Of a stretch of 64,000 bases of DNA, positions 5,962 to 63,998 are shown in pieces. Position 1 is the stretch's first letter. Every line of letters starts with the position of its first letter. The position numbers and the translations under genes were made by a program. The notes under the pieces are model-generated. The model made no database searches. It saw only the letters and a program-made list of their open reading frames with translations, and had not been told where the DNA came from. Origin of the DNA: Adineta ricciae (Eukaryota; Rotifera; Eurotatoria; Adinetida; Adinetidae); the NCBI GenBank assembly GCA_905250025.1, contig CAJNOJ010000061.1, forward strand, positions 392,385-456,384, in the 5' to 3' direction.

Positions 5962-7590
5962 ATGAACTATCCGACAGGATTCACAAGTAGTCCAGTCTAT
6001 GAATTCCCTTACTTGGGACCACAGGTACCAACGACTACGTACAATGATATTGATGCTATACTAGCGGTATGTGAGATTGCATTTCTTTGTTAGAAAGTTG
6101 TAAATAAGTTTATATACAATAGAGTGTTACATCTGGAGCTAATAACGTAGTTCCCTACCAACAACCAGCGTGTACTTTACAGTGTGTTCCACAGATAAAT
6201 CCGACGATAGGCAGTAATGCAACTGTTTATCATGTTTCAGGTTTATATTTGTTGTTCTTTCTTGTATTTGCATTAAGTAGAAAACTATTCATTCATCTGC
6301 AGATGATATTCCCATTGAAGCAATTTTAAAACAGTTTGGCATTAATGTCGGAGCATTGCAACAATCTAATACTTTGAATAATTACTATAGAAGTAAGCAC
6401 TAAATATTATTCAGATATGGACTGATCAGTGTATACTTGTTCATGATATTTTATAAGGTACAGCGCAACCAGTCGACCTTACAGTTCATTCTTCTCCATA
6501 TCGTCACCGTCGACGGCTTGTTTGCCAAGAAATATCTGATACAGAAGATGATAGTTTTCGCAGACGGCTGTCGCGGTCCCGAACACGGCATCTTTCCGGT
6601 CCCAATGATCTACAACTGCCATCTCCCGCTATGCATGATGTATTAGGTAGAGTATGGGATAAAGTACGAGCTGGATCAGAACATTTACCGACATCAATGT
6701 CTGCGCCCAATTTGAACTGGCAAGCTCAACAAAACAGACCTCCATCTCCCCTTCCTCCTCCTCCCCCTCCACCGGCTTCAGGAATCAATAATGTCTGGCA
6801 AGCAATGCGAAATGCACCATCGCCAACGCCTGATATGAATCAAAATGCTATAAAAAATGTTTGGAATCGAGCAAGTAACGCTGCCGAACAAAATGCCAGT
6901 CGTACGTGGAACGTGTTTAATAAAATGCGACAACCAACTGGTGGGATTGTTCACAGTCCACCACCAATGGCAAATCGAGAAGCTGTGCATGATTTTCTTG
7001 CTATGCGTAATCTGCCACCCGGTATAAATCAACCCTTACCGCCACCACAAAATCGTGAAGCTTTGAACAATTTTCTCGCTGCACGTCACATACCATACGG
7101 CGTCAATGAGCCACCACGAACTCGTGAGGCTGTAAACGATTTCTTAGCGGCGCGTAGTGTACCATCTGCATATGGTCAACCTCCACCATCGTGGGGACCA
7201 CCATCAAATCGAGAAGCTATAAATAATTTTCTTGCTGCGCGTAACGTACCATTCGGTATTAATCAGCCACAATCACCACCATTACACAATCAAGAAGCTA
7301 TTGGCAATTTTTTCGCAGCACGTAATTTTCCACCTCTTGCCAATCCATCCAATCCAGCTGTTGCAAACGTATGGAATAGAGTAGATTATGCAGCTCATCA
7401 TCCATCACCTATCAACAATGCATGGAATCGAATGTCACACGGCGCACCATTTCAATCGCAGTCTTCCTATCCACACCCACCATTCAGCAGCGCAATACCA
7501 CCTCCTCGGTATGTTCCTGCTCCATCGTCATTTGGTGCTTTGCTTTCTCAAGCACATAGGCAGCATTTACCATATGCAGGAGCTATATAA
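5962..7590 (+). CDS. Novel repeat protein with REA..FLAAR and W-N motifs
   Basis: Four exons, 5962-6066, 6123-6240, 6303-6392 and 6458-7590, join in frame to 481 residues. I do not recognise the family. Residues near 277-400 hold five imperfect units of 23-29 residues with the core [NT]REA-x-x-[ND]FLAAR-x-xP, starting at about 6973, 7051, 7120, 7207 and 7288. Around them a second short motif recurs (NNVWQAM, KNVWNRA, ANVWNRV, NNAWNRM). A PPPPPPPP run lies at about residues 203-210 and an Arg-rich patch at about 115-145. There is no signal peptide and no transmembrane segment. The protein is probably largely disordered with short helical repeats; a scaffold role would be a guess. Confidence 0.8.
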
Positions 7591-7750
7591 TCTACTCATC
7601 TTGTAGAACAGTGTTTGTCAAATATTTCTAGAAGAATAGTCAAGCTTTATCTTATATACTTCTATTATTTATTGAAATATTTTCGCCTTAGTCTCGTCTT
7701 TTGTCACATTTATCAAGCATACATATAGATTTTTAAGAAAATAAAGAATT

Positions 7751-8350
7751 TTATAGAAATTTATTGGCTTTAAACAATGTTAAATAGCCATTCACACAAC
7801 CCACGGGTGCTTTCGTTTTTGGTTCAAAAAATTTGATCTTGAATCGATACGTTCCAGTCGTCATCGGTTTCACAAGTTTCGCACTTTTCTTTCGCTTAAT
7901 TTTCATAGGCACGTGTTCAAACGTGTATATACCAGTATCAAGGTCACAAGAACATGGATTCGAGGCATTCTTCGCATTGGCTCGAATAAGACTTTTGCTC
8001 TGACAGGCCTGTTTGATGAGATCACAAAACGATAATTTGTCACATGCACCAATACCCGCCAAACATGGTAGATCGAGCCAAGCAGATCCGAATTTTCTTT
8101 CGACTTTAGTTGAAAATTGTATCTTATCACTGAGTTTCTTCGTAACATTGATTGTCATTGAAAGATCGAGTGCACCAGGAAGAGATAATTCGTTATTCCA
8201 TATGTTAAAAGCAATAATTTGAATTGGAAGCGACGATAATTTCTTTGACTCCTTAATGCAATTGACGTCAACTTCGTTCATTTTCACGGTATAGGATGAT
8301 CCATAGATTTGCTGAATTAGCAACAAGAAGAAGACAACGGCTAGCATCAT
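7751..8350 (-). CDS. Secreted ML-domain (GM2 activator/MD-2-like) lipid-binding protein
   Basis: A single exon of 199 residues. Residues 1-17 form a clear signal peptide (MLAVVFFLLLIQQIYG), so the product is secreted or lysosomal. The body has an ML-type arrangement: a Cys near the mature N-terminus, an LPC..GIGACDKLSFCD segment, CSCDLDTGIY, then GTYRFKIKF...CVNGYLTLF at the C-terminus. This resembles ganglioside GM2 activator proteins, which lift lipids from membranes for hydrolases. Identification is by pattern only and the sequence is divergent. The stop lies about 160 nt from the stop of the convergent upstream gene. Confidence 0.65.
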   Translation of the reverse strand: MMLAVVFFLLLIQQIYGSSYTVKMNEVDVNCIKESKKLSSLPIQIIAFNIWNNELSLPGALDLSMTINVTKKLSDKIQFSTKVERKFGSAWLDLPCLAGIGACDKLSFCDLIKQACQSKSLIRANAKNASNPCSCDLDTGIYTFEHVPMKIKRKKSAKLVKPMTTGTYRFKIKFFEPKTKAPVGCVNGYLTLFKANKFL

Positions 8351-9174
8351 GTGACAGCTAGATTAGCTTTCGTCTATATGGTACGATAAGATAAGTAAAC
8401 TGAAAACGTTCTATCTCCAGCTATATATTTCTACGAGGAAGCAGTATACAGATAATAAGATGTCAGAAGTGTTCGCAATTAATCAACTTATCAACAATGT
8501 CATCAACTATGGCAGAGATTCGCACATACAAACTGTATTATAAAATGTTGTAATCCTACAGTACTGTATTCAATAAATCTATATTTCGATGTAAATCGGT
8601 CCGTCCTTGATCTGTTTCTCATCATTCTATGCCCGATATCAATGAATAACTAAGATATTTTACATTGTTACTTCCAATTCTCAATTCGTCCAACAATATA
8701 ATGTCAAACCATTTCACTGTTGAGGATCACTACTACAGTTCTCATAATTTTCATCCTCTTGATCATTGAAATGGCAACACAAAATAACTCATTCTAGATT
8801 TTCCAGATCCGAAGCAGAATTAGTACATCAGAATATAGATTTATTGAGTAAAATATTGTAGGATCAAAATATTTTGTAGTAAAATTCAAAATACAGTTTG
8901 CATTTGTATTTACGCATCTCTACGAACAAATCGACTCGATTTATCTTCATGATATTGACTAAATAACAGCTAGCATATAAAGGTTGACGAGCATTGATGT
9001 AGAACAGAGACATCTATCGATTGAATAAACTACGGGACATATGAACGAATCAGAAAATGGGCAAGTAAATGTACATTCATACGATCCACACTCTAAAGAC
9101 TTGAATGAATGAGAAAAACGAGCGAGCAACCTCATCCTTATGATTCTTTCGTAATACTTTAGATCAGGAAAAAA
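8351..9174. promoter_or_regulatory. Promoter of the ML gene (GATA pair, TATA-like) and spacer to NOP16
   Basis: Directly upstream of the minus-strand start codon lie two overlapping GATAAG words (8385-8395), and further up a TATATA element at 8422-8427, about 75 nt from the ATG. The remaining spacer up to NOP16 is AT-rich with no convincing gene. A TTTAG/CAG run at 9158-9168 just before the NOP16 ATG could act as a splice acceptor. Confidence 0.35.
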
Positions 9175-48800: not shown

Positions 48801-49312
48801 AATATATATATAACTATACCTATTATGATTGATTCTCCACACACACACACGCGTCATATTAGACAATATTTAATGTTCGGACAGCATGAATTGCACAATA
48901 TTCTATGACTGGTTCGATCAAAGTACTTCCTTTTCACACTCCTTATACGCGCCCACATGAGCATATATATATATATGAGTTTGTGTATTTTATATAATCC
49001 TTCGCCATCACGACGTCGCTGTTGCTGTCATTATCATCGATGAAACAATGTATGAGTATATGTGTATCGATAAATAATAATAATTGCATATTACGCCACA
49101 CATGTGTTCATGCGTTAATCTTTCTTCTTCTCTTCTTTTTTTTTCTCTCTTTAACTATAGATTCCTATTCTACTCATGTCATTCACCCTCACCCTTTCTG
49201 CCACATGAATAGATGGAGAGACAGACAAGAGAAAGAACAAAAGAATCATCCGAGAAATCATGCATCGAAAACAAAACATAGGTGAGTGTTCTCATGTTCG
49301 GACAGTTCAGAC
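45856..49312. other. Gene-poor region with microsatellites
   Basis: 3.4 kb of AT-rich sequence with CT runs (48091-48107 and 48367-48381), a GA run (47339-47352) and a CA run (48837-48850). Short open frames are composition-driven. A possible untranslated 5' exon of the DLC1 homologue ends at 49280 (AAACATAG|GTGAGT); a reading through it into the next exon is out of frame, so it would be a UTR. Confidence 0.45.
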
Positions 49313-49525
49313 ACAATATATTGGTTAGCGCCAAACTGAACAGCAGCTCTAGGGGTTGATTTAAGTGGCCACTTCATTATTTTTTGTTCGCTGGGTACCG
49401 CTATTCGGCTATGTCGATGTTCTTACCAACTCTATTTGCATGTATGTAGATCGAAGGAAGGCCGAGATGTGCACTACTACTAAGTGATTTATCGATCTTC
49501 CGATGTGAGTTTAGTTATAGTCGTC
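49313..49525 (+). repeat. Inverted repeat, left arm (213 bp)
   Basis: This segment is identical, base for base, to the reverse complement of 50348-50560, apart from the ambiguous base at 50558. The flanks diverge at once on both sides. The arms are separated by 822 nt. No target-site duplication is seen around either arm and no transposase lies between them. Confidence 0.95.
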
Positions 49526-50301
49526 ATCATCGTCACAATTCCTGTTTTGCTCTGTTTTTCTTCTTTCGCTTTGCTTACGATCATCATCATCGGCGTTTTT
49601 GAAAGAAGAAAGTAAAACATAAATAAGAAAAACCACCCACGCTTGTCGTCTCATACAACATTCGATTTAGTATTATGAGCAGTACTAGTCACTGCCATTT
49701 TATAAACAGAAAGCCACAAAGAAATCCGAGTTAATTGAGATGAGCTTTGATGCGTACACAGAGAGAGAAGCATGCATGAGTTGTCCTTGATCGCATGTGT
49801 TTTATTCATTGTCATCATTCTTGATGAAATACAGTACCTAGTGAATGGATAAAGAAGAAAATTTATGTAAGATGTTCGCAGCTTCGATCTATAAATAATC
49901 GAATGTCGTCCTCGCCGTTGTTCTTCCTCATCATTGTTACAATTGTCATATACTATTCAGTATAATGCTGTAGTGGTGACCTCGTTTTACTATGCGGGCG
50001 TATGTGTATACACGCACACACACATACACACAAGCGCAAAGGCAAACGGATAAAGAGAGAAAAAGAAAAGCGCGCCGCGTGTGTGTGCACACACATAAGC
50101 ATATACTCTATGCGCGAGAGGGAAGAAGAAAAAGAAGGAGAAGGAGAAGAAGAAGATTGTTGAACTAATTTTGCGCCGACGAACACTACCATACAAAAAT
50201 AGTGTTCTGTATGTGTGTATGTATGTTATCGTGAATGAGGAAAAGAGTGTTGGAAAGAGAAGCGAGTAATCGATTCACATGATAAATCTTTTCTATTTCA
50301 G
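49526..50301. other. Segment between the inverted arms; CA-rich simple repeats
   Basis: AT-rich with a CA/TG-rich tract (49998-50100) and a GAA-rich tract (50120-50156). Its right end, TTTCTATTTCAG, is a strong acceptor leading into the first coding exon of the DLC1 homologue at 50302. It probably represents a 5' UTR intron. Confidence 0.5.
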
Positions 50302-53300
50302 ATGATCACTTCAAGTGACGATGTGTTGGAATTAAAAATCGATGAACGACGACTATAACTAAACTCACATCGGAAGATCGATAAATCACTTAGTAGTAGT
50401 GCACATCTCGGCCTTCCTTCGATCTACATACATGCAAATAGAGTTGGTAAGAACATCGACATAGCCGAATAGCGGTACCCAGCGAACAAAAAATAATGAA
50501 GTGGCCACTTAAATCAACCCCTAGAGCTGCTGTTCAGTTTGGCGCTAACCAATATATNGTCTATCACCGATCTGTGATGAGCAACCAATAACGACAACAA
50601 CAACGAATACATCATCAAATCATCAGCATTTTCCTATAATGATTCCGTCCGATGATAATCACATTACTACATCAACTACCGCATTACCTCGTCATTCAAC
50701 GAAATCACCTTCACGTCAAGCGACTCTCTTTGCTCGTCGGCATTATCATGTCTACGATTGGACACGTCTTTCATTTTATGATAATGTACCACCACCACTC
50801 GGCTATCAAAGTGAACCAGTCATCATCGATAATCGTTCTCCCACAGCAACATCAGTTTCGTCAACTGATGACCATAGTCTGAAACGCACTACTTTAACTC
50901 ATATTCGTTCTTCAACTGATAGAAAAGATTCCGGTCTTGGTACAAGTAGTGTTGAAAGACAGATCGATTCTGTTGTATTAACAACTAATTCTGATGTATT
51001 ACATCGATCGACATCTTCTCTGTCATCGTCATCGTCATCATCATCTTCGTCAGAAAGTGATGTAACCAATACTATCCCGTCATCTTCAACGCCGGCACGT
51101 TTACCCGCTAGTCGTAAAATTCGAGTTAAATGGCATTCATTTACAAAATCTCATCGTCCTAGTTTTAATTCATCGAAATATCATTTGGGACAAATGTCCG
51201 TTGGACAATTATTTGCTTTGCGCCGTGCAGCATCTATACGTATCCAAGAATTACTTGATACAACAAGAATTCTATCAATAAAAAAGGATGATCAAATACC
51301 AACATTAGTCAACACAACTGTTGCATCACCGCAAAGTTTACTTGCTACTGCATTTAGTGCTGTACCAAAATTAATCATTCGACGACATCAACAACGAAAA
51401 GTTCGTTTCTTGTTCTCAATACACATGTTCTTCTTATTGAAAATTTATAGGAAACTCATTCAGAAATGAAAGATATTAAAAAATCAGTATTCGGTGTGTC
51501 ACTTCTTTCGATGACTCAACGCACTGGACATCCCGTTCCAATAACGATTATTTCAGCCATGAAATATCTTCGGCGAACATCAATCGACAGCGTTGGCATC
51601 TTTCGTAAACCGTAAGTTCATCTATGAAAGCAAAACTAAAGATCAATTGTTTGATTGAATCTTTTCTATTAACCTTGAGTATGTCGAGAATGTTCGGAAT
51701 GAAAGAGAATCAAATATCCGAAAGATGATACAATTTCTATTCTCAAGGCTGGTAATCAAATATTGTTATAATGTTAAATAAATGGTGGTTCGTTCTTTTC
51801 ATGTCTTCGCGGAATTAATTCAAAAGAAAAGAGCTCTCTTTCCTAACACAATTATCTCTGAATGTACTTTTTCACGTCTATCCGCTGATTAAAGATTGTT
51901 GATTTAAAACAATTTGAAGTTAATGCAAATGAAGTGACTAGATTACCTGCAGCCAGGCTAATCCTTAAATATACTTTGACAAAATAAATGGAGCAAATAA
52001 GCTCAAAGGAAAAATTCATTGAGTGACCTTGTTATACCGAGCGTCAAAATTTGCCTAAGGATGTCTATTTTTAGTCAGTCTTTCCTCAAGAACTTAGATT
52101 GAAACAATGAAATAATCTGCTCTTCTTCTTCTTTTTTTTCTCTAGTGGTGTTTCTAATCGTATCAAGCGTCTTCACGATTTAATTGAATCTGATCTCGAA
52201 TTTCATCAATTCGATGATTTCAGTCCATATGATGTTTCGGATGTCTTAAAACAATACTTCCGTTCATTACCGGAATGTTTATTCACAACGAAACTATCAC
52301 CGCTATTTCTTAATATCAGTGAGCATTTTTCCAACATAGCCACATCATCATCGATCGATTCCACAACGATCAAATTAAATAACGAACGTCGATTACGTTC
52401 GTTACAGTATGCGGTTCTTCTCTTGCCAGATGAAAATCGTTTAGTATTACATTTGCTTCTATCGTTTTTAAATGATGTTTCGAAACATTCGAAAACGAAT
52501 CAGATGAGTTCGATTAATTTAGCGACTTGCTTCGCACCAACATTGTTTTCATTTCGTCACTATAACGATATGGAAATAGTCGATCTATCTACATCGTCAT
52601 CGACACGCAAGACTCCGCAGACGACAGTCACTTCAAATATCATGGGCATGCCTGATTGGAGAGAAATTCAAGAACAACGGAAGGCTATGGAGATTTTAGC
52701 ATTTATGATCGATCATGTTCGATCATTATTTCTTGTACCGGATGAACTTCATCAAGCATGTCACTTTTCTTATATTGAAATTGGCGAACCATGCACATTA
52801 GAAGAATTAGCGCGACGTGTATCGGAAACGACAACAACATCCGCTGTAACAACAACAACAACTCCATTGTTGAATAAATATCGGCGATGTTCATCAAGCA
52901 ATCTCGTTGGAAAACGTACAGCACAACAGCGTGCAACAGAAATCGGCACTATATCAGCGTCTGATTCGATTGGATCATTGTCATCGTCACCGTCCGCATC
53001 ATCATCATGCGAAAATATTCTTTTAAATGATAATTTAACTACGAGTAAATCTTCGACAACGCCCACAACAATGAAATCATTCTCATCATCACGCTTATGT
53101 ACTGACGATATGACTAGTGCATTGCAATTACTATCAACACCACCGAGTATAAAAAATTCCTATCAAGGCTTTATCGATCGCTGTATTGTGGAAGTGATGC
53201 GCGAATCGTGTTACAATAAAATCAAAGGATGGACTTCGTTTGGAATTAACAATGACTTAGAACTTGCATTCAAAAAATTAGACGACGGTCATCCACTGGG

Positions 53301-54175
53301 ATTGTGGAAATGTTCAGCGGAAATTGAAGCGCCACCAATTGAAATACTTAATCGACTTCTAAACGAAAGGCATCTTTGGGATGATGGTACGTACAATGAC
53401 GATATCCTTTCATTGTTCTCGAATTTTTCTTGTGACTATTTAGATTTTCAATCCGGTACAATTATTGAACAGTTAAATCAAAATACGCACGTTTATCAAT
53501 ATACACTCAACTCAATGGTAAATGTTTCCTCGAAGACTAATGTTCAATTATCAACTTGATGCATGTAAATTTTTTTCAGGCTCCTTTAGCATCGCGATAT
53601 TTCTGCGAAGTACGTAGTTGGAGAACGAATGTTCAATTGAATACGAATGGCAGTTATCAAAATTCCATGTCAACAAACAATAATAGCTATACTAATAACA
53701 CACTAATGGCACTTCCAGTTGGTTCATCATCAACAGCATCGTCCAGCGCAATAGCTTCATTTATTACTACGCAAAATCCACATAATCAAAAGCGAGATGC
53801 GTGTGTTCTTGTCTGTACATCTATTGAACATCCAAAAGCACATTGCCCACCAACTCTTGGTAAAAGAACGAATACTTCGAAAGTTCTATTCTCTATCTAC
53901 TTCTTGTTTTTCTATTAAATAGTTCGCGCTGTGACATTAGCTTCTCGGTATTTAATACAATCCTATGGTAATTAATTGATTTGATGTTTTCAGATCTCGT
54001 TCATTCTCGTTTAGGATGTGGTAAATCAAAAGTAACACATTTAAGCCGTGTAGATCTAATGGGTCGTTCACACGAATGGTATACCAAAGCATATGGTTCA
54101 GTCTTAACTCGATTAATGACAAAACTCAGAGACTCATTTGCCCATTTAAATACGGGCCCTGAAACAAAAGTCTGA
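50302..54175 (+). CDS. DLC1: DLC1/STARD13-type RhoGAP with START domain, first exon interrupted
   Basis: Exons 50302-51400 (broken by the inverted arm 50348-50560), 51451-51611, 52146-53517, 53580-53859, 53923-53967 and 53994-54175. As given, the frame from the ATG at 50302 stops inside the inserted arm (TAA 50356-50358); if the arm is ignored (keeping GT at 50559-50560) the exon continues in frame and the protein has 975 residues. A start at 50639 would avoid the arm. RLSFYDNVP, KDSGLGTS and VKWHSFTKSHRPSFNS match DLC1 linkers. The RhoGAP domain has the Arg finger in GIFRKPG, and YDVSDVLKQYFRSLPE and LPDENR match. The START domain spans GLWKCSAEIEAPP...EWYTKAYG. No SAM domain is visible. It should switch off RhoA at adhesions. 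Confidence 0.88.
50348..50560 (-). repeat. Inverted repeat, right arm (213 bp) with the only N of the window
   Basis: This is the reverse complement of 49313-49525. The single undetermined base is at 50558, three bases from the arm end; the left arm predicts T on this strand. The arm carries stop codons in the DLC1 frame (TAA at 50356 and 50546). Sequence on either side reads in one frame, IDER then LSPICDE, if 211 nt are skipped. It is either an assembly error or a recent inverted insertion. Confidence 0.93.
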
Positions 54176-55003: not shown

Positions 55004-57394
55004 ATGGGAATTGAGGGCCTCCATCCTTTGTTAAAATCAGCGATACATCGCGTAGATATCAAGCGCGCTGAATTTCGTGGTACGACATGTGCTGTTGATA
55101 CAAGTTTCTTACTTCATCGAGGCGCTTATGCATGTGCCGGAAAATTAGCGCAAAAAGAATCCACCGATAAGTAAATACGACCTCTTCCATGTATTTTATC
55201 GAATGAAACTTGTCTGTGTTTTTCTCTCTTCTACAGATACGTTCAATATGTAACTCGATATGTAGAAAGATTACTGGAATGGGGCATAAAACCGATCATG
55301 GTTTTTGATGGTTCACCACTGCCGGCAAAGCGTATCACGAATATCAATCGAAGCGAGTGGGTTGTTGATTTTTATTGACATGAACGTCATCTTGACTTGG
55401 TTTACGTCGCTTTTAGCGAACGAGAACGAAATCGTCTACGTGCACAGAAAGCATTGGCCAGTGGAAAAACACGTGAAGCAGAGCAATTCTTTCAGAAAGC
55501 TATTGAAATTACACCAGATATGGTTCTCAATGTTATTCGAGTTCGATGAATTTTCTTTGATGATTAGCGATCTATCATTGATTTGCTTTAGACTCTTCGA
55601 ACGATGGGAATAGATGTTATTGTTGCACCGTATGAAGCTGATGCTCAATTAGCATATTTGAATCGAGCAAAAATCGCTGATTATGTTATTACAGAAGACT
55701 CGGATCTTGTTCTCTTTGGTTGCCATTACGTAAGATATGCAAATAGTGTGTGCTTTCAAATAATACTCAGAAGTGAATGTTTTAGATCTTGTTTAAACTT
55801 GATGATCAAGGCTATGGTGAACTGTTTGAAGGAACAAAACTCGATTTGAAAAAAGAATTTGGCTTGGATTCTTTTGAACGTTTTCGTTGGATGTGCATCT
55901 TATCTGGATGTGATTATCTTGATAATATCGCTGGTATTGGCTTAGCAAAAGCAAAGAAAATCATGAGTCGAACGCAAATAAACAATATCGAATTAGTATA
56001 GAAAAGATTTTATTCCATCAAGATTTGCATTTTACAATTCATGAATAGATTCTCAAACAACTTCCCCAAAACCTCGGCAAAATGAATCTTCGAGTGACCG
56101 ACGATTATATCACTGGGTTCAAGCGGGCACATTTAGCGTTTCTACATCAGATTGTTTATGATCCTGCTCAAAGAAAGCAAATACCATTGAACCCATTACC
56201 CGACGATATCGATCATAGTCATCTCAAATTTGCTGGACAGTATGTTTAGGATTTAATGTCTATGAAGTTTTCTTCATTCCTACATTTAGAATCGACGAAA
56301 CATCACTAGCATTTCAACACGCAATTGGAAATTTGAATGTGAAAACTAAATGCATAGTTGACAAATTCGATCCAGATAAATGGAACGTAAGTTTATCCTG
56401 TTTGATTCGTTGCTGAAAAACAAAAGAACCGATATTTTGAATAGTATCGTTTGCCCAAATTAACATCGGGTTTTACGCCGGCATATTTGAACTCCATCTG
56501 GAATAAAGAATTTCGTGTCCGTGCCGAACCATTTTCATTGATGTCAACGCCCATAAATCGGCAAGTACTCGCTACACCATCTCCACCAAGAAAAGTTCGT
56601 TCACAACCAACGCCATCGTCAGATGCCCTCTCTTCTTCAACTATTCTCAACATGTACCTACCAAAATCAAGTGAGAAGAAACATGAAACAAGCACAAAGA
56701 CATCCTCGTCGATCGAATACCACACATCGATCATTCAAAGTATTGAAATCGTCAAACGACCTTTGCTATTCAATCAATACGACGAAGACAAATCGAGTCG
56801 ATTTTTTTCGTCATCAACTGTAACAAAGAGTACAAGTGTATTTGAAGCTATCAGCGAGAATCAAAATACGACATTGACTAAAGATGTAACTTCACCGAAT
56901 AAAAACAAACGCTTCAAAAAAATAGATACTGAAAATGACTATGACAATTTACCACAAGCGACAACAACTCAAAGTTCAATTGAAGAATTGATGACACCGA
57001 CAAAACCAATTCGTGATGTTCTGAAAAGAAAATCATCTAATACGATCAAAGACTCACCACCGACAGATAAATTAGATAATCAAATCTCAGATAACCTAAA
57101 GGTATGATCGATTTCTTCTTGCCTATGTATATAACCACTTGAATTGCCTGTGTTCTATAGAATGATTCACCTATCGAAAAAATTGGTAAGTCTCTTGTCT
57201 GAGAAAACAATGTATGTATTCGTCGTTTAGAATGTCCACCAACGTTAACGAATGAAGCAAAATCTCCAGTACTCCAGCTACCTCAACATCTGAGAAATCG
57301 CTTTGCAAAGCAAACGTATGTTTGCATTGATACCATCGTTTTACAGATTTGTATGTCTTATTCTAGAACATCTCGAATGGTGCGACCAACATGA
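55004..57394 (+). CDS. EXO1: Exonuclease 1 (Rad2/FEN family)
   Basis: Eleven exons (55004-55170, 55237-55356, 55417-55540, 55592-55729, 55786-55995, 56049-56239, 56290-56386, 56445-57101, 57161-57185, 57231-57315, 57367-57394) give 613 residues (846 in human). The metal-binding acidic residues are all visible: [43 protein letters not shown] and [18 protein letters not shown] (helix-two-turn-helix). The N-terminal 340 residues align well with human EXO1, while the Ser/Thr-rich C-terminal region is short and divergent. EXO1 resects 5' ends in mismatch repair and recombination. The 25-nt exon 9 and the last two exons rest on splice phase alone. Confidence 0.93.
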
Positions 57395-59301
57395 AACATG
57401 TTGTTCTTGTTGGCTGATGCATGCATAACTTGTTCTCAGACGTTTTTATGTGTTCAATTTCTCAATATCTCTGTAATGCATATCCCTCTCTTTTTTCCTC
57501 TTTTAATTTCATGATGGATTCGAGTTAAACATTTGTGTCTGTGTGTATGTATGAGTGTATAGACAGATATTTTTTTTTGGCTATGATGATTCTCTTTTTT
57601 TGTGTCTTTAAGATGCTACTATATAGATTTGTGAAAACTAACAGAATGACATTACTGAAAACTAATATCCGTCTCAAATATCTAACATTTGCCGTCCTAT
57701 GAACTATTAAGGTTGATGGTACTTTCAATAAGTGATACAAGAAGTGATTCCGAAAATGAAGAACTTATTGCTCCAAAGTTTTATGTACAGACTAGCATGA
57801 GGAGATGTATAAAGTGTAGTCAAAGAAAAGTTCTTTGCATTTGTTGGAGTGAGAGTGAATATGGGTTGTTATTTTTGAATACTTATCTATATAGAAGATC
57901 GTATTGGTAAGCTACTCTAATGGCTATGAAAATATCTGCTGATGTTCGTATCGACGTATGCTAAGATGGCCCTCGAGTGTAACCATGCATGCCTTCAGAA
58001 TTTCATAGACAAAAAGTAATATGCCATAAATACGATAGGAAAATGACATGAAACATAAATTAAAACAGGTTCCGTTTAATAAACTAGATCGACTTGAATA
58101 TCCCTAACATGTATGCGTGGTTCTATATGATTGCATACACATACAGATGTAACTCCTTTTCTTTTCTTTTTCCTTTCCCACATGTCCTGTATTTTCTCGG
58201 ACAATCTTCAATTTCTACTCAGTCTTTGATTCAGCCGATTTCGAACTTGTGTTTCGCTCAGTTGTTGTGTCTTCTTCGAAATAAATACTATCAAATAACA
58301 TCACCATGTTCACTCTATTTCACATCAAATCAAAGTACTATAAAGCCTAACACTAAACTAGCTCGTTGAGATCTCAGTTCTCAATTGGTCGTTCTTCTTT
58401 TACAACTGTCTACTAAGCATGACAGCAGATAAAAAGAAACAAGTAATCAACATTATGCGTATTTCATAAGAACCATCTAATTTTCTTTTCTTTGTATCCT
58501 TTGCTGAAGGTTAGGTTGTATGGTCGTTAAAAATGCTTGAAGTTTGTGTATTTTTTTGAGCGATTGAAATGATGTAGAAAAGTGTTCTGGTACTTTTCTT
58601 TTCGAACATTTATCAAAGGTAAAGAAAAATGCATCGCACAAGAGATGGTACAATACCATTGGATATTTGGACATGATATAAAGCTTAAATCATTGCTTCG
58701 CATTGATGGAAAGTAGAGCTTAGAGGATGTAGTGAATTAGTCGGCACAATCCTCGAACGACTACGCCTTAGCTCGAGTGATTTCCAATGGGCAATTTGGG
58801 TGGAAGAAAGTGACTTTTTAAGAGCTGGAGAAGTGGTTCAATTAATGAATTACAACAAATCTTTAGTTTGTCTTAACTATGTTCTGCAATGTAGTGTCAT
58901 AGAATTCATCTGTAGCGAAGAATATGACGTTCGTTCAAAACGATTTGCAGTAAAATGAGTGTCGATTTATCACAAAGTACTGTGCACATCATTTATATAG
59001 AAAGAAGTTGGTTGACAAACAACTTCACTATCAAATGTTCTCTCGCCTCTATCGACTTGCCTTTCTTTCATCTTTTCCGTCTATGTATATCGCAAATCGT
59101 GCGATCAATATACCACGTGCTACTTCAATCAATTAATGTATATATAACTCAATTTTTGATATTCCAGTGTGTCTGCGTTTTCCTTGCGATGTCCAATATT
59201 TTCGACTTTTATTTCACAATTTATTCTAATTGAACCCTTATGCATGTGTATGTAGGCTTGCAAAAAATCAAAAGATTTACATTAAAAGGGATTCATATTC
59301 G
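57395..59301. other. Gene-poor region, EXO1 3' flank
   Basis: 1.9 kb of AT-rich sequence between the EXO1 stop and the convergent R2D2-type gene. Short open frames such as 57689-57910 and 58094-58369 have no domain and no splice support. Nothing else was recognised. Confidence 0.45.
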
Positions 59302-62894: not shown

Positions 62895-63998
62895 CTAAGA
62901 GATAGAACTAGCGATCACATCGAATAAATAAAAGGAAATGAAAATGTTCGAAATAAAATAAAAGTTAAGAAAGAGACTTGTTGATAAATTAGTTCCACGA
63001 TTTTTTACTTCAATATACACTGTCTTCAGATGTTTGATCTCAATAAAAGATGTTGTTGTCTCATTTAATGTTGTTACCTCAAAAGCTGTTGAATTCACGT
63101 CTAAAGTTCCTTCTTCAGTTTCAAATGAGGTCGATAATGTTGTCGCTAATGGAGTGGCAGTTATTAACGTTGTTTCTGCATCAGCCATCGTTGTTTCACT
63201 GATTGTAGTAGGATTGGAAGTTGAACTTATAGTTGTTGTGCTAGTAATCAGAGTGGTAGTTGTAGAAGAAAAAAAAGTACTGCTGATAGTAGTAGTAGTA
63301 GTAGTAATAGGAGTGCTGGAGGTAGAATCAGTTGTCACGGTAGTGGTAGTAAGAATTGTCGTTGATGTTGTTATTGGAATAGTCGTTGTAAAGAGTTTTG
63401 TACTAATCGTTCGAATTGGGAAAGTAGCTGTCGATTTGCTCGTAGATGTTGATATGGTTGAGTTCGAAATTGTTGTGTAAACTGGATTTGTTCGCGGTCG
63501 AGATGGTGCTTGTTGTAGTCGTTGACAAGTTGAAGCGTCCTGATTACACATGGGTCTTTGACAAGTACAATGAGTTCTATTGTTTTGTTCGCGTTCGCCG
63601 AATGTTAAACATTCGTAATGATAAATTGAATAGAAATCCTTGTATATTCGACAGCTTCGACATTTGTGAAGAATTTCCACAGGATATTGACTGGAATTAG
63701 TACCATGGTAACAGGAGAAATGTCGCTTTGACGTTACTTCGTAAATACATCGTTGAATATTTGAATTACATTGATTAGAATTACAATAGCAATGTGTTTG
63801 ATCATACCCATATAATGGACCATCGATTTCCCGTGCACATTGTTGATGTATTACTGTATCGGCATTTTGTCGGCGGCGGCGACGACGACGACGACGTTTC
63901 TTTTCATCAAATAAAAATAATTCTTCTATTGATGGCTCAACATTCGATATAAACTTATTTCTTGAAAAGAACGCTGCTGTCGGTTTCGTTGTCATCAA
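62895..63998 (-). CDS. Thr-rich, Cys-rich (Ly6-like) surface protein, 5' end beyond window
   Basis: The frame is open to the right edge; no signal peptide is seen, so earlier exons probably lie outside. From the N-terminal side: a poly-Arg run coded by CGN/CGC-type triplets (about 63864-63898), two Cys-rich blocks each ending in C-x-C-x(4)-CN (HCYCNSNQCN and HCTCQRPMCN), which resembles three-finger Ly6/uPAR modules, then about 130 residues of Thr/Ser-rich mucin-like sequence, and a hydrophobic C-terminus (FLNFYFISNIFISFYLF) typical of a GPI signal or a membrane anchor. It is probably an O-glycosylated cell-surface protein. The family call is by Cys pattern only. Confidence 0.6.
   Translation of the reverse strand: MMTTKPTAAFFSRNKFISNVEPSIEELFLFDEKKRRRRRRRRRQNADTVIHQQCAREIDGPLYGYDQTHCYCNSNQCNSNIQRCIYEVTSKRHFSCYHGTNSSQYPVEILHKCRSCRIYKDFYSIYHYECLTFGEREQNNRTHCTCQRPMCNQDASTCQRLQQAPSRPRTNPVYTTISNSTISTSTSKSTATFPIRTISTKLFTTTIPITTSTTILTTTTVTTDSTSSTPITTTTTTISSTFFSSTTTTLITSTTTISSTSNPTTISETTMADAETTLITATPLATTLSTSFETEEGTLDVNSTAFEVTTLNETTTSFIEIKHLKTVYIEVKNRGTNLSTSLFLNFYFISNIFISFYLFDVIASSIS

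What the first reader, a model, noticed from the sequence alone, without database searches (positions are those of the whole stretch)
49313..50560. Perfect 213-bp inverted duplication ending at the only undetermined base
The sequence at 49313-49525 is the exact reverse complement of 50348-50560, with 822 nt between, and the single N of the window (50558) lies at the end of the right arm. Neither arm has a target-site duplication or transposon-like ends, and there is no transposase between them. Perfect identity means it is either very recent (fold-back or template-switch insertion, active gene conversion) or an assembly artefact at a joined gap.
Basis: seen in the sequence. Interest (0 to 1): 0.72.

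Follow-up and report, generated by a model that had tools for sequence, protein, structure and literature searches.

The report
Inverted copy at a contig join
A perfect 210-base backwards copy of a nearby stretch sits in the middle of an animal gene exactly where two assembled pieces of the genome seem to meet, and it is very probably a laboratory and assembly error, not a real duplication.

Summary
The repeat is real in the letters: 49316-49525 equals the reverse complement of 50348-50557 (210 nt, no mismatch); the window's only N (50558) follows, then 2 more matching bases. It is very probably not real in the animal. The left arm is native: it lies in an intron of a DLC1/STARD13-like RhoGAP gene and matches the same intron of a diverged gene copy on contig C20. 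The right arm has no counterpart there; C20 has exon-intron-exon sequence in its place. In 294 kb of this contig a scan found two exact inverted pairs (24 nt or more, within 10 kb), and both end at a single N. A single N on another contig is where similarity to its 94% identical copy begins, so such Ns can mark contig joins. Contig statistics fit the Adineta ricciae ARIC003 assembly, made from whole-genome-amplified DNA; phi29 amplification (MDA) makes mostly inverted, local chimeras. Low interest.

The parts
49313..49525 (+). Left arm: native intron sequence of a DLC1/STARD13-like gene, the source of the copy
   Evidence: Collinear with the same intron of the second gene copy on C20: local score 63, best of 300 shuffles 45
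50348..50557 (-). Right arm: exact inverted copy of 49316-49525, probable chimeric contig tail
   Evidence: Exact over 210 nt; no similarity to the C20 counterpart (score 24, reached by 171 of 300 shuffles)
50558..50558 (.). Single N, read here as the join between two contigs (inference)
   Evidence: Only N of the window; a single N on C69 coincides with a break in collinearity
49282..50301 (+). Inferred intron (donor at 49282, acceptor ending 50301) that holds the left arm
   Evidence: Donor and acceptor motifs shared with the C20 copy
50302..50347 (+). Start of the next exon (MITSS...), cut off by the right arm
   Evidence: MITSS start shared with the C20 copy; in this frame a stop codon stands at 50356-50358, inside the arm
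50561..51469 (+). Continuation of the coding sequence after the N
   Evidence: LSPICDE... resembles LPPICDE... of the C20 copy; ORF 50639-51469
52423..53559 (+). ORF with the end of a RhoGAP domain and part of a START domain
   Evidence: Pfam RhoGAP E 2.8e-12; PDB STARD13 (2pso) E 4.2e-21 and Rho GTPase-activating protein 7 (3kuq) E 1.5e-9

Best explanation
The right arm is an artefact. Most likely, during phi29 multiple displacement amplification (MDA) a displaced 3' end from the exon at 50347 re-annealed to the same strand about 0.8 kb upstream and copied 49525 back to 49316. The chimeric product was assembled as a 210-nt inverted tail on a contig end, and scaffolding joined that contig to the next one, which starts at 50559, leaving one N. 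Shown: the exact copy, the N at its edge, which arm is native, a second N-edged inverted pair, and a single N elsewhere at a break in collinearity. Inferred: that the assembly is ARIC003, that MDA made the tail, and that the tail is absent from the animal. The confidence given is for an artefact as a whole: about 0.55 for the MDA route and 0.35 for the gap-filling route listed as the first rival.
For: The exact copy ends at the window's only N. In 294 kb of C61 (1-200000 and 362385-456384) the scan found 2 exact inverted pairs of 24 nt or more within 10 kb, and 2 of 2 abut a single N. The C69 single N is the point after which 94% identity to C20 begins. Left arm native, right arm not. The C20 copy has 203 nt of exon-intron-exon where the window has 213 nt. 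In the frame of the preceding exon the arm brings a stop codon at 50356. Assembly fingerprint: published ARIC003 N50 283.8 kb, L50 129, GC 35.5%, 135.6 Mb; here C128 is 283,933, C129 277,305, C130 281,877 and the last contig C1033 10,113, total 130.46 Mb, GC 35.6% in the window and 35.3% in 200 kb of C61. ARIC003 DNA was whole-genome amplified, with the REPLI-g kit named in the same passage; the chimera paper used REPLI-g for its MDA. MDA chimeras: 406 of 475 inverted, 337 of those under 10 kb, most with junction complementarity. Next to this junction lies a 6-nt complementary run (CGATGA), a length reached by 0.3% of random local junctions. Inverted duplications judged artefacts of amplification are reported in an assembly.
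Against: No reads were available. 3 of 5 single Ns have no inverted copy abutting them, so a single N alone does not imply this error. The second N-edged pair is not a clean copy: 68 nt identical, then 11 differences in 88 columns, so it could be an older real repeat or a copy from the other haplotype. A genuine inverted repeat longer than the assembly word could also break a contig at its edge. The 6-nt run is 1-2 nt off the exact junction and the test was framed after seeing it. The methods section does not say how ARIC003 was scaffolded. C129 and C130 are not in strict length order, so the fingerprint is close, not exact, and the species is an inference; a recalled rotifer spliced-leader sequence had no match.
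Confidence: 0.9

Rival explanations
1. Assembly artefact without MDA: a gap-filling or contig-extension step put mis-oriented reads from the neighbouring intron into a gap of about 211 nt and left one N. (A sub-case of the artefact reading; its odds are contained in the 0.9 above.)
For: Same geometry and same N. The GapFiller paper (passages) names paired-end noise in mate-pair data as a source of incorrect scaffolds. The piece inferred to be missing from the C20 comparison (203 nt) is close to the 211 nt occupied. The 2018 A. ricciae pipeline used mate pairs, SSPACE and GapFiller.
Against: Does not predict a complementary run near the junction, though that is weak evidence. The pipeline for the assembly that fits here is not stated for this sample.
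Confidence: 0.35
2. A genuine, very recent templated insertion (inverted copy by template switching during break repair) in the gene; the repeat made the assembler break at its edge.
For: Perfect identity and short local complementarity also fit template switching. Repeats longer than the assembly word can break contigs.
Against: Needs the copy to end at a join by coincidence, or repeat-caused breakage that left an N at only one of four arm edges. Interrupts a gene that is uninterrupted in the second copy. The second N-edged pair has only 68 exact nt, which seems short for a repeat-caused break (word lengths of assemblers are recalled, not looked up).
Confidence: 0.07
3. Fold-back transposon, MITE or other mobile inverted repeat.
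For: Inverted arms with a spacer.
Against: No further copies found in the held genome (counts are lower bounds); no flanking direct repeat by eye; no ORF of 150 aa in the spacer; the left arm is old intron sequence.
Confidence: 0.01

Closest known systems
Inverted chimeras of phi29 multiple displacement amplification (PMC1855051, passages)
   Same: Inverted, local (under 10 kb), intervening stretch skipped, short complementary run near the junction
   Different: Seen here in an assembled contig, not in reads; the run is 1-2 nt off the junction; amplification of this sample is inferred from the assembly's likely identity
Inverted duplications in an assembly of amplified DNA (gorilla Y, PMC6218980, passages)
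   Same: Inverted duplications that the authors attribute to amplification and that were not detected in the compared contigs after read correction
   Different: Those came from long reads; here a short tail at a probable contig join
Genomic palindromes of Adineta vaga (2013 assembly, as described in PMC5916493, passages)
   Same: Inverted arrangement on one scaffold, bdelloid genome (species here inferred)
   Different: Those are multi-gene blocks of homologous copies; this is 210 nt of intron. The 2018 study reports none in A. ricciae

Membership tests
MDA inverted chimera | Second segment inverted relative to the genome | tested here: met
MDA inverted chimera | Segments usually less than 10 kb apart | tested here: met
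   822 nt between arms
MDA inverted chimera | Complementary bases (2-21 nt) at the junction | tested here: inconclusive
   6-nt run 1-2 nt from the exact junction; 0.3% of random local junctions reach it; test framed after seeing it
MDA inverted chimera | DNA was amplified with phi29 | tested here: inconclusive
   Whole-genome amplification stated for ARIC003; that this is ARIC003 rests on assembly statistics
MDA inverted chimera | Junction absent from unamplified DNA | not testable with these tools
   No reads held
Fold-back or MITE transposon | Several copies in the genome | tested here: not met
   Only the two arms match each other (the tool's counts are lower bounds)
Fold-back or MITE transposon | Target-site duplication | tested here: inconclusive
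   By eye no direct repeat flanks the right arm, but the N at its edge leaves the border uncertain
Bdelloid gene palindrome | Inverted blocks of homologous genes on one scaffold | tested here: not met
   210 nt of intron; the second gene copy was found on C20, none further on C61

The most novel reading that the evidence does not exclude
A true, very recent inverted templated insertion in a RhoGAP gene of a desiccation-tolerant bdelloid rotifer, made by template switching during break repair, with more of the same kind hidden at single Ns across the genome.
Probability: 0.06. Interest if true: 0.45.

Novelty: not a real feature. Interest (0 to 1): 0.08.

Why it matters
Mainly as a caution. In this assembly a single N can mark a contig join, and at 2 of the 5 single Ns seen an inverted copy of nearby sequence ends there. 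Such tails break gene models (here a DLC1/STARD13-like gene) and could be miscounted as inverted duplications in a group of animals where palindromes have been used as evidence about asexuality (PMC5916493).

Tried and rejected
Transposon or fold-back element: no extra copies found, no flanking direct repeat by eye, no ORF of 150 aa in the spacer. Structured RNA: no Rfam family at its gathering score. tRNA: none. Gene palindrome of the A. vaga type: the second gene copy is on C20. Rotifer spliced leader recalled from memory: no exact match in the genome, so it gives no support to the species call. TGTGGG repeats occur (38 matches), but the tool's reversed control matches as often (44), since the reversed unit is a rotation of the same repeat, so uninformative. 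Allelic copy of the window region: none found, only the diverged C20 copy, so no haplotype comparison at the site was possible. A paper stating that a scaffolder writes one N at a join was not found (passages of PMC6733440; search listings only); that habit is recalled, not shown. Papers looked at for A. ricciae sequences to confirm the species gave none that I used (passages of PMC3464624 and PMC3499245; listings).

Full report
Observation. The two arms are as described: 212 of 213 columns are complementary and the exception is the N at 50558, the only undetermined base in the window. The unbroken exact match is 210 nt and stops at the N; the two bases beyond the N could match by chance. Two other inverted pairs of 40 nt or more in the window are imperfect (79% and 82%) and have no N.

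Setting. The window is the end of contig C61 (392385-456384) of a 130.46 Mb genome in 1033 contigs. The arms lie in a gene like DLC1/STARD13: the downstream ORF 52423-53559 matches Pfam RhoGAP (E 2.8e-12) and solved structures named StAR-related lipid transfer protein 13 and Rho GTPase-activating protein 7 (E 4.2e-21 and 1.5e-9). A second copy of the gene, 69%, 73% and 58% identical in protein over its three matched stretches, lies on C20 and was fetched.

Which arm is native. Both gene copies share an intron donor (window 49282) and an acceptor (ending 50301) followed by the codons MITSS. The left arm lies in that intron and aligns with the intron of the C20 copy in orientation and order: local score 63, against a maximum of 45 in 300 shuffles. 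In reverse orientation the score is 30, reached by 38 of 300 shuffles. The right arm, as read, scores 24 against the exon-intron-exon stretch of C20, reached by 171 of 300 shuffles. So the left arm is the source and the right arm the copy. In the frame of the preceding exon a stop codon stands at 50356-50358, inside the arm. In the C20 copy, 203 nt of exon, short intron and exon stand between the stretches that I align with the two edges (IHER and LPPICDE), where the window has 213 nt. That alignment rests on short motifs. From MITSS to LPPICDE the C20 copy has 393 nt and the window 259, so the missing piece could be longer. If instead nothing is missing, the arm is a pure insertion of 210 nt plus the N.

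A detail I cannot place: the ten bases AACGACGACT that span the left junction (50345-50354) also occur at the start of the C20 exon just upstream of LPPICDE, in another frame. It may be chance, or a sign that native sequence runs a few bases into the arm and that the jump used this shared stretch.

The N. In 294 kb of C61 (1-200000 and 362385-456384) there are four single Ns and one run of 93. A scan for exact inverted pairs of at least 24 nt within 10 kb gave two pairs, and both end at a single N: this one, and 57054-57121 against 58927-58994, next to the N at 57053. The second pair extends to 156 columns at 93% identity: 68 identical, then 11 differences in 88, with 1630 nt between its arms. 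It is less clean: it could be a copy of the other haplotype or an older repeat. The Ns at 366722 and 381305, the 93-base run, and a fifth single N on C69 (170987) have no such copy at their edges in the sequence held. Of these, 366722 has a 19-nt inverted match 100 nt away, and C69 a 20-nt direct match, neither abutting the N; only 4.3 kb was held to the left of 366722 and 3.4 kb in all on C69. So 2 of 5 single Ns carry the feature. The C69 N is informative in another way: C69 is 94% identical to C20 from the first base after the N onwards, and no similarity was found in the 517 bases held before it. Single Ns in this assembly can therefore mark joins between contigs.

Which genome. The paper on bdelloid transposable elements (PMC7943196; outline, passages, sections 15 and 17) lists A. 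ricciae ARIC003 at 135.6 Mb, 4302 sequences, N50 283.8 kb, L50 129, GC 35.5%. Here contigs below about 10 kb seem to be left out (C1033 is 10,113), and C128, C129 and C130 are 283,933, 277,305 and 281,877 bases; GC is 35.6% in the window and 35.3% in 200 kb of C61. This is a close but not exact fingerprint, so the species is an inference. The DNA of ARIC003 came from about 200 animals and was whole-genome amplified; the kit named in that passage for the single-individual samples is REPLI-g. Section 17 does not say how ARIC003 was scaffolded. The longest contig (1,697,170) is near that of the 2018 A. ricciae assembly (1,675.3 kb; PMC5916493, abstract, passages and section 16), so older data may also have been used.

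Mechanism. MDA chimeras were studied in PMC1855051 (passages): 406 of 475 were inverted, 337 of these joined segments less than 10 kb apart, and most began at complementary bases. Here the segments are 0.8 kb apart and inverted, and a 6-nt complementary run lies 1-2 nt from the junction, a length reached by 0.3% of random local junctions (the test was framed after seeing the run). In a human genome, inversions with at least four supporting mate pairs rose more than 200-fold after MDA (PMC3142133, passages), and inverted duplications in a gorilla Y assembly from amplified DNA were judged artefacts (PMC6218980, passages). I therefore think that a chimeric product became a contig tail, and that the contig was then joined to the next one across one N. 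A gap-filling error with mis-oriented reads would look nearly the same and I cannot separate the two; both are artefacts. The 0.35 given to that rival is contained in the 0.9 for an artefact.

What speaks against. There are no reads. A real repeat can also break an assembly at its edge. Only two N-edged cases were seen, one of them imperfect, and 3 of 5 single Ns have no inverted copy at their edge. I put about 0.07 on a real event.

Novelty. If it is an artefact there is nothing new. The practical point is that single Ns in this assembly deserve suspicion before gene models or inverted duplications near them are believed.

Noticed in passing
C61:57053-58994 (L010 local 7053-8994): A second single N with an inverted partial copy (68 nt exact, 156 columns at 93%) of a stretch 1.6 kb away; the copied stretch has relatives on C69 and C20.
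   Followed up: partly
C69:170987 (L045:518): Single N after which C69 is 94% identical to C20; no similarity was found in the 517 bases held before it, so this may be a wrong contig join or a haplotype switch.
   Followed up: partly
C61:163945-170485: Direct duplication in two blocks (458 nt at 99% and 940 nt at 97%) spaced about 5 kb, seen in the self-comparison.
   Followed up: no
window 50345-50354: Ten bases spanning the left junction also occur in the C20 copy at the start of the exon upstream of LPPICDE; chance or a trace of the jump.
   Followed up: no
window 6631-7590: ORF of 319 aa with repeated units of about 26 residues (FLAAR-like motifs) and no Pfam match at E 0.001.
   Followed up: no
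window 62895-63998: ORF rich in threonine and serine with a cysteine-containing first part, no Pfam match at E 0.001, reaching the contig end.
   Followed up: no
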